Assembly: GCF_963675165.1 (NCBI RefSeq)
Contig: NC_087391.1
Coordinates: 1,693,001 to 1,757,000 of the forward strand
Origin: Halichondria panicea
Lineage: Eukaryota; Porifera; Demospongiae; Suberitida; Halichondriidae
DNA: 64,000 bases
Reading direction: 5' to 3'
A program made the position numbers and the translations under genes. How positions within the stretch are numbered: the first letter of the stretch is position 1; the number at the start of each line of letters is the position of its first letter. Shown here piece after piece: positions 41,501 through 44,500 of this stretch. The notes under the pieces are model-generated. The model did no database searches. It had not been told where the DNA came from and saw only the letters and a list, made by a program, of their open reading frames with translations.

Positions 41501-44500
41501 TGAAGCCATACGAGCAAAGGATAAAAACAAAATTCATGGTGGTAACAATATTGACGTCACTCGTATATTGTTTGTCATTCACTTGCCACAACAAGAAGTC
41601 AAGTCACAGTTCGTGGGCTTTCAAGGGGACCCCTGGATCTCGGTGCACATTGATGATTTGCGAGCTACTTCTGAGATTACAGTGATACCTGAACAAGCGC
41701 TGAATGCATCTATTAGTGAACTTTTCATCGGGAAACTGAGAGAGAAAAACCAGGAGCGACCTGATTTAGAAGAAAGTGATGAGCAAGAACTAAAAAAAGG
41801 GAGTGACTCTTACTTTAGGATTGAGACTGGTGAAGAGGATAGTGAGGGCGAAATGTTTCATTCTGCCGAGCATAGCCATCACATGAGGGACGATGATATA
41901 TACAGTGATCAAGACATGTCTGATGAAGCAAGTGTGCCAGATACTCCCCAGCGGCCTAGCATATCTAGTTTAGAAGAGGTCAACAGAATGGATACTGAAA
42001 GTAACGAACCTCATGTAGAGCTGGCATATAGAGACAGTGCTCTCAATGATGAGGCAAGCAACATGATGGACATTGAGGATGCACAATTGTTTGATCCTCT
42101 ACTAATCGACGTAGCGGTGCCTCCAGTGGAGGCTGACAAGCTGCCTAGTGATACTATGCAAATCAGTTTACCTCCAAGTGAGGAAATTGAAAGCATTGTG
42201 CCTACAAGTCCCATCAAATATTCTGATGACGACAATGCCGAACCCACACCTCTTCCAATGAAAGCTCATTCAATTGCTGAAGTTCCTACTGTTCAAAAAG
42301 AAGTTCCATCATTCCACTCTCAGCACCACCGGCTGTTGGGCTGTGTGCAAGCTGCTGTATCAATGCTCAAAGACACTCTGAAGGACAGAGCAAAGCACAG
42401 AATACTGAAACTCATGTCACTTATTCCTAAAACACATCCAGGTAACCATATGCAGTATGTACACTAATTACTGTTCTAATAAGTTATCCCTATATATAGG
42501 TGAGGCTCCATTCTACGACCTTTTGGTCAAGCTTATTCACTCGGCTCTGCTGCAGAGAGAAAGTGACCGAGTGGACGAAAGAGAATGGGTGCTCAATGAG
42601 GCCATGAGTGGCAGAAAGCTACAGAATGGAGGTACATTCAGAAATGTTCTGGCTCGCCGTATTGATGAAGTCATCACTCCCTATTTTGCTGAGATCATTG
42701 CTCATGTTGACCAGAACTGTAACCTTGATCTACTCGATTCCAAAGACCTGAATTCACCTGTATCAAGGTTGTGGCTTACCATATTCAAGTTCACGGGAGG
42801 AAGGATTGACTTCTCCTCACTAGCAGAGGGCAAAACAACCATAAAGAATAACTTCCAGTGCCAATTTCCTTTCTCGTGGTTTGTAAAAGACATGGTGAAC
42901 GCTCAGAGAGCTAACATGCTAGGTTGGTGCAGTTGTTATGATGTTGTGCATGTTAGTGCAATCATGTATCATGCATTACCATAGATACTGAACAACACCT
43001 CCATAACTCACTGTGTGAGGCTCTGAGTCTAACTGATATGGGGACGATCTTGGGCAGCGTTGATGAGGATCACGTTGACAAATTCTACAAACTCTATCTT
43101 TATGATTTTGTGCGTTACATTCATAAAAGCAGTCACAAGAGCGAGCTAGGCAATATGGAGTACAAGGTATGTCTGGCATGTTTCTTTTCTTATAGTTGAT
43201 GGGGTAACTTGTTTCATAATTTTCTTTACAGCTAATCATGAATGCGTTGGACAATATGACCCACCATAATGACTTCTGCTCTGTGGATGGCCACGAATCA
43301 CTGTCTCGGAAAATAGTGGCTCTCCATCTTGTTCATGGCCAGTGTTCTTCCAAGGTGCTCCAGTTTGGTCAGATTGTATTGCACAGACCAAGTATTCTAC
43401 GCTCCCTATCCAACAAGGACTCATTCAGAGTGGCAGGACAAGTAGGCTGACTTATATGTATACAAGTATGATTGTTTCGGTAGATCGGACATTTGATTCT
43501 ATAGTTCGCTCAAAACTGTCAGTGTATTGAATGTCCACAACGATACTAACCTCACATTGTCATTATATTACCTTCTGTAGGATTTCGCTCTTCATCTGTA
43601 TGCGGTGCAAAGAGTGCTAGAATCGGATCAGGAATATAATGACCCCACTAGCCAGGACTTGGCCGGCCTTAACCCTCCTTTGCACAAAACTAACCAGGAT
43701 GATCTCACTCGGGACCTTCAGCGATGGTTAAACCACGTCCGTTTGTCTCAAAATGTCATTGACACCATCTTGAGATCAAGCTCTGGGGATGATACTACCA
43801 TCATGTCAAGGTTAAAAGAGAAGGCTGTGAATGCATGCATCCATTAGTTTTACCATTCTGTATATAGGCTGACATGGCAAAGGATTAGAGCTCTGCAGAT
43901 TTTCGCTGAGAAGGTTTATCTCCCTCACTGTAAAGTTGATGGGATGCGTTTTATCATTAGAAGACTTGCGCTAGTAAGTTTCATTTAAATATATATTTAG
44001 ACGTTGCAATGTTTTTCATTCTCCATATGTTTATGCAGACTTTGAAGTCTCATTCAGACTTTCTAAAAGAAGTCACCGTCAAGGAAGTCAAAAAAATATT
44101 GAATGCTGTGTTCAATTTTCCAAAACTTAAAGCAGATAATATCACGAAGAAGAAAATTAGGAAAAGTTGTAATCGTTTCTTCATTGAGGTTGTCTCTAGC
44201 TTGTGTTTTGGTGGTATGGAAGCACCAGAAACAGAGCTTGTCAAATTGCTGTTAGACACTGTCCTTCGAGACAACCAAACTAGCAGGCTTTCTCCTTACA
44301 ATGACGAGCAGCAGGATGAGACTCCTACAATCAGATCATTCTTACTGCAGCTGCTGCTTGAACATGAGTGAGCCGTTAGCTAGACATTTTGTTTTTTAGA
44401 GGATTTCATGTCTTCTTAACTCTTGATAGACATGATCAGGTAAAACAGTACCTAGACGAGTACTTCAAGCGGTCCATTGCAGTGATCAGAGGGCATGGCA

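What the first reader, a model, noticed from the sequence alone, without database searches (positions are those of the whole stretch)
43868..44367. An RNF213 homologue that has lost its RING finger cleanly
Vertebrate RNF213 has a Cys/His-rich RING of about 40 residues just before the conserved segment ending ...CNSFFVDLVST. Here the equivalent exon (44,039-44,367) runs straight from [13 protein letters not shown] to [18 protein letters not shown] with no CxxC or CxH pair, and the flanking introns (about 57-65 bp) are too small to hide a RING exon. The RZ finger, both ATPase sites and the C-terminal domain are intact. Family knowledge: biochemical work on RNF213 found the RING dispensable and the RZ finger needed for ligase activity. 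A natural RING-less orthologue would be evolutionary support for that model.
Basis: partly seen in the sequence, partly recalled or inferred. Interest (0 to 1): 0.85.

Follow-up and report, generated by a model that had tools for sequence, protein, structure and literature searches.

The report
RNF213 gene without a RING finger
A giant animal immune ubiquitin ligase, RNF213, is encoded here without the RING finger it is named after but with its other catalytic finger intact, in line with laboratory work on mammals showing that the RING is not needed.

Summary
Window exons 43,868-43,973 and 44,039-44,367 encode the end of the RNF213 E3-back domain without a RING. The unaligned stretch is 55 residues shorter than in mouse; the published, active mouse dRING mutant is a net 54 shorter. 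Introns there are 57, 65 and 62 bp. It is not an assembly slip: the four RNF213 loci found in this 131 Mb genome share the exon layout and lack the RING, with open E3 frames and pairwise dN/dS 0.15-0.25. A human RING-plus-flank probe matches the flank at all four loci and the RING at none. The RZ finger (six key residues at human spacing), both ATPase sites, the C-terminal domain and a UBE2L3-like E2 are present. Most likely it is a RING-independent, RZ-finger transthiolating E3, as shown for mammals. "Lost" is not shown: no outgroup RNF213 with an alignable E3 module was available, so the RING may have been lost here or gained later elsewhere. New here: two of the four paralogues also carry changed RZ sites (nucleophile Cys to Tyr; general-base His to Glu plus a two-residue insertion). 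The organism is probably a sponge (inferred, not tested). No transcript data.

The parts
34882..34905 (+). AAA3 Walker A (GETGCGKT)
   Evidence: motif in open frame; assignment to AAA3 by order and recalled family layout
35122..35139 (+). AAA3 Walker B (VVFFDE)
36821..36844 (+). AAA4 Walker A (GKPGSSKS)
   Evidence: identical in mouse
37312..37329 (+). AAA4 Walker B (VVVLDE)
   Evidence: identical in mouse
42500..43810 (+). Exons B-E: start of the E3 module (42500-42922, 42985-43166, 43232-43441, 43581-43810)
43868..43973 (+). Exon F: E3-back, upstream of the RING site
   Evidence: GT-AG, open frame, present in 4 of 4 loci
43974..44038 (+). 65-bp intron; cannot hold a RING
44039..44367 (+). 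Exon G: runs across the RING site (LKADNIT) into [18 protein letters not shown] with no RING
44430..45809 (+). Exons H-M: E3 shell (44430-44541, 44631-45032, 45083-45199, 45263-45358, 45417-45677, 45737-45809)
45875..45909 (+). Exon N: first half of the RZ finger ([11 protein letters not shown])
45998..46095 (+). Exon O: second half of the RZ finger ([22 protein letters not shown]), with the nucleophile Cys and the general-base His
   Evidence: PF20173 76.4 bits for the spliced protein; genome hit 1738980-1739084; spacing as in human and mouse
47140..47474 (+). Exon P: after the RZ finger
   Evidence: aligned to mouse
47531..49691 (+). Remaining exons to the stop, including the C-terminal E2-docking domain
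   Evidence: open spliced frame ending in a stop; E 4.3e-35 to PDB RNF213 over 48304 to the end

Best explanation
A genuine RNF213 gene of an animal, probably a sponge, whose protein has no RING. It should work as mammalian RNF213 does without its RING: ATP binding by AAA3/AAA4 switches the E3 module on, the C-terminal domain docks a UBE2L3-type E2, ubiquitin passes to the RZ-finger cysteine (GEC, mouse Cys4462) and on to substrates with help of the RZ histidine (mouse His4483). Shown here: gene structure, RING absence, conserved motifs, purifying selection. Inferred: expression, catalysis, substrates. Whether the RING was lost or never present is open.
For: RING absent in 4 of 4 RNF213 loci at the same site. 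Human RING-plus-flank probe: of 11 matches at E 0.01 or better, 4 are the flank (63-98) at the four loci and 7 are RINGs elsewhere. Length difference 55 residues against a net 54 in the published dRING mutant (59 residues replaced by 5), which is active. RZ Cys-His-Cys-Cys-Cys-His at offsets 0, 4, 11, 20, 23, 32, the same as human C4505/H4509/C4516/C4525/C4528/H4537 and mouse C4451/H4455/C4462/C4471/C4474/H4483. Walker A and B of AAA3 and AAA4 intact. In the C-terminal domain, mouse W5097, D5101, Y5106, E5108 align to F, E, Y, D (E2 contacts). A UBE2L3-like gene in three exon pieces of 64-78% identity to human. dN/dS over 6 pairs 0.15-0.25.
Against: No transcript or protein data. Mouse F5093, also an E2 contact, faces a gap here. 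The RZ is not uniformly kept: the C16 copy has Tyr for the nucleophile and the C17 copy has a 2-residue insertion in the metal site and Glu for the general base, so ligase activity is not under strict constraint in every copy. The AlphaFold model of exon G alone is poor (mean pLDDT 52), so the helix-loop-helix is weak evidence. One species only.
Confidence: 0.78

Rival explanations
1. The RING was never there: RNF213 began as an RZ ligase and the RING was inserted later between the last two E3-back helices on the line to vertebrates. This differs from the best explanation only in polarity.
For: All 4 RNF213 loci lack it with no remnant, including a pair at dS 1.24. Three deeper RNF213-like loci (C12, two on C9) show no RING by motif scan, nor do two contigs of a pond sample with giant RNF213-like frames. 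The published structure describes the RING as inserted between the two last E3-back helices.
Against: The deeper loci do not align to the E3 profile at all, so their lack of a RING says little. No cnidarian, ctenophore, choanoflagellate or other sponge sequence could be searched.
Confidence: 0.45
2. The RING was lost in this lineage, before the four copies diverged, because the RZ finger carries the activity. A pathogen effector that binds the RING, as Shigella IpaH1.4 does in humans, could favour loss.
For: Mammalian RING is dispensable for activity on bacteria and for autoubiquitylation. IpaH1.4 needs the RING to degrade RNF213 (passages of PMC12440826).
Against: No scar or remnant, and no RING-bearing relative of this lineage in hand. 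The effector idea has no evidence in this animal.
Confidence: 0.5
3. The gene is decaying or no longer a ligase; the RING is gone because E3 function is relaxed.
For: Two of four paralogues have changed RZ catalytic or metal sites. One C17 AAA4 match contains a TAG, which may be an exon edge or a true stop.
Against: E3 frames of 887-890 residues without stop in 4 of 4 loci and dN/dS 0.15-0.25. RZ identical in the window copy and L001.
Confidence: 0.1
4. Assembly error or missed exon hides the RING.
For: No reads or transcripts were available.
Against: Same arrangement in four loci on three contigs without N; flanking introns 46-72 bp in all four for E-F and F-G; no RING motif in the stretches scanned (one chance second-half motif in the C17 G-H intron, flanked by stops).
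Confidence: 0.03

Closest known systems
Vertebrate RNF213 (mysterin)
   Same: AAA4 58% identical to mouse over the aligned stretch, E3 module, RZ finger with the same six residues, C-terminal domain
   Different: No RING; about 55 residues shorter at the RING site; Tyr in place of the non-essential mouse Cys4457
Engineered mouse RNF213 dRING (PMC7311170)
   Same: Removal at about the same site and of nearly the same net length; that mutant keeps wild-type-like autoubiquitylation
   Different: Natural sequence with its own short linker instead of Gly-Ser-Gly-Ser-Gly; activity not tested
ZNFX1
   Same: Has an RZ finger; 16 further RZ matches in this genome, many in frames of 1,781-1,904 codons, are probably this kind (inferred)
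   Different: Recalled to be a helicase protein, not a giant AAA ligase

Membership tests
RNF213 | AAA3 and AAA4 Walker motifs | tested here: met
RNF213 | E3 back/shell/core homologous to vertebrate RNF213 | tested here: met
RNF213 | RZ finger with metal ligands, nucleophile Cys and general-base His | tested here: met
   against residues; met in the window copy and L001, not in the C16 and C17 copies
RNF213 | C-terminal E2-docking domain | tested here: met
   four of five named contacts same or chemically alike, one faces a gap
RNF213 | Groups with vertebrate RNF213 rather than with deeper RNF213-like AAA proteins | tested here: met
   AAA4 stretch only, six sequences
RNF213 | RING finger (C3HC4/C4HC3) in the E3-back, present in every solved RNF213 chain matched (human, mouse) | tested here: not met
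   The name-giving domain is missing, so I file the gene as a RING-less variant, not as a standard member
RNF213 | Ubiquitin ligase activity | not testable with these tools
   needs biochemistry
RING-type E3 | RING domain | tested here: not met

The most novel reading that the evidence does not exclude
The RING is not ancestral to RNF213. The family began as a giant AAA ligase working through the RZ finger alone, this animal keeps that form, and the name-giving RING was inserted later on the line to vertebrates. In the same genome two copies went on to alter the RZ finger as well, giving RNF213 proteins with neither a RING nor a normal RZ site that are still under purifying selection, perhaps as ATP-sensing scaffolds.
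Probability: 0.35. Interest if true: 0.75.

Novelty: new variant of a known kind. Interest (0 to 1): 0.6.

Why it matters
Mammalian work says that the RING is dispensable while disease variants cluster in it, and the authors of PMC12440826 argue that it must matter because it has not evolved away. An animal whose RNF213 genes all lack it is a natural test: it points to a RING role outside core catalysis and outside the ancestral or sponge setting. The paralogues with changed RZ sites offer the reverse test in the same genome. I found no report of a RING-less natural RNF213 in searches of an open-access library; subscription papers are mostly not held.

Tried and rejected
Structure of exon G alone: mean pLDDT 52, helix 2-25, loop 26-33, helix 34-58; comparison with solved chains was uninformative, best Z 6.1, and chains over 3,000 residues such as RNF213 are not aligned by that tool. 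Short query over exons E-G against PDB matched only the CNSFF side. Outgroups: two viral scans and one genome scan found no relative; a second genome scan gave two contigs of a pond MAG labelled Verrucomicrobiaceae, probably a microeukaryote, with giant AAA frames, no RING motif and no alignable E3 module. Organism identity: cysteine peptidases looked for silicatein and COX1 (one nuclear fragment) did not settle it; 'sponge' rests on genome size and small introns and is an inference. One search also lists a fifth, non-significant match (C9:6683240, E 1.3). The first motif scans let stops sit inside a match and could mask hits; I repeated them, which gave the same answer for full RINGs. In one search the L001 row was lost because two alignment rows carried one name, so its regional identities are not quoted. 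Rejected: assembly gap, hidden exon, RING elsewhere in the gene region of the window.

Full report
What was claimed.

The observation. The exons, splice sites and introns are as described. A joined model of 16 pieces from 41,364 to 47,474 is open for 1,362 codons, and the rest of the gene joins to a stop near 49,691. The introns around the site are 57, 65 and 62 bp. Against solved RNF213 chains the E3 part aligns on both sides of the site (E 1.4e-84), leaving 140 residues here against 195 in mouse. The published mouse dRING mutant replaced residues 3941-3999 by five residues and kept wild-type-like autoubiquitylation (PMC7311170, passages): a net change of 54 residues against 55 here. The stretch is diverged, so the near match in number may partly be luck. 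Pfam sees a RING in the human segment (E 1.3e-7) and none in the window's. A repeat motif scan with controls finds no RNF213-type RING or half RING in six frames of the window.

Four loci, one answer. Searching the genome with the exon at the site gives four strong loci and one non-significant match; a C-terminal exon gives the same four. They are the window copy, L001 (C15, about 82 kb away), L002 (C16) and L003 (C17). Spliced E3 modules of 890, 889, 889 and 887 residues have no stop and the same 14-exon layout; identities to the window copy are 98, 80 and 62% (L001, L003, L002). Pairwise dN/dS is 0.15-0.25 over 6 pairs, with dS 0.07 (L001), 0.50 (L003) and 1.24 (L002) against the window copy. 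A human RING-plus-flank probe gives 11 matches at E 0.01 or better: the flank at all four loci, and RINGs at seven other places, none beside an RNF213 locus. A local assembly slip cannot explain this.

The rest of the machine. Walker A and B of AAA3 and AAA4 are intact; the AAA4 stretch is 58% identical to mouse. The RZ finger of the window copy and of L001 has C, H, C, C, C, H at offsets 0, 4, 11, 20, 23, 32, identical to the human and mouse residues assigned as metal ligands, nucleophile and general base (PMC11549300 and PMC12075652, passages; alignment). PMC12075652 places E2 docking in the C-terminal domain, not the RING. There mouse W5097, D5101, Y5106 and E5108 align to F, E, Y and D, while F5093 faces a gap. 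A UBE2L3-like gene exists on C8 in three pieces of 64-78% identity to human.

How it most likely works. By the mammalian scheme: ATP-switched AAA core, E2 on the C-terminal domain, ubiquitin onto the RZ cysteine, then onto substrate. The RING has no step in that scheme. This is inference from conserved parts; neither expression nor activity was tested. A nuance from the literature: RING inactivation partly impaired ubiquitylation of the Toxoplasma vacuole in mammalian cells (PMC11549300), so the mammalian RING is not wholly idle.

Loss or primitive absence. The window gene groups with mouse against three deeper RNF213-like loci of this genome (C12 and two on C9, 34-35% identity) and a pond contig. 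Those deeper sequences show no RING by motif scan, but they do not align to the E3 profile, so they cannot root the RING. No other animal or choanoflagellate genome could be searched. I therefore say absent, not lost.

A second natural experiment. In the C16 copy the nucleophile cysteine is tyrosine, all other RZ key residues being kept. In the C17 copy two residues are inserted between the last metal cysteines and the general-base histidine is glutamate. Both keep open E3 frames and low dN/dS, though a C17 AAA4 match contains a TAG that may be an exon edge or a stop. If both are expressed they would be RNF213 proteins without any normal ligase site, which limits how far the family here argues for RZ catalysis.

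Known or new. The RING-independent mechanism is known from mammals. A natural RING-less RNF213 was not found in searches (listings; passages read in six papers: PMC7311170, PMC11549300, PMC12440826, PMC12075652, PMC13061254, PMC13319465). The original Nature paper on the RZ finger is not held and is known to me only through these. I rate it a new variant of a known kind.

Noticed in passing
L002 7202-7299 (C16) and L003 minus strand (C17:3200255 region): RZ finger changed in two paralogues: nucleophile Cys to Tyr (C16); 2-residue insertion in the last Cys pair and His to Glu (C17).
   Followed up: partly
L010 (C12:372001-382000), L011 and L012 (C9): Three deeper RNF213-like AAA loci, 34-35% identical to the window in AAA4, with no RING motif and no match to the E3 profile; where L010 and L012 align across the RZ position, no RZ finger was seen.
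   Followed up: partly
L013 and L014: Contigs binned in a pond Verrucomicrobiaceae MAG carry giant RNF213-like AAA frames (up to 3,229 codons), probably from a microeukaryote rather than the bacterium.
   Followed up: partly
window 52466-52762 minus strand: Pellino RING domain (PF20723, E 1.9e-29) of a neighbouring gene on the opposite strand, about 3 kb downstream.
   Followed up: no
window 31603-33231 plus strand: Frame of 542 codons with DUF3504, QRICH1 and phage-integrase matches, a tyrosine-recombinase mobile element or a relic of one, upstream of the AAA exons.
   Followed up: no
window 11895-12842 minus strand: Tc5/DDE_1-type transposase frame.
   Followed up: no
window 28447-28773 plus strand: Weak UBA-like match (E 0.0013, below Pfam's cut-off); it may belong to the N-terminal part of the same gene.
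   Followed up: no
window about 41760-42330: Long acidic, probably disordered insertion in the exon before the E3 module, kept in L001 and L003 but largely missing in the C16 copy.
   Followed up: no
G000 C12, 15 places, and C17:2737649: Sixteen further RZ-finger matches, probably ZNFX1-like genes, 15 of them on C12.
   Followed up: no
L009 (C9:2570150-2570850): Cathepsin-L-like exon with SSWAFS and DRSV in place of the usual SCWAFS and DHGV, so apparently without the catalytic Cys and His.
   Followed up: no
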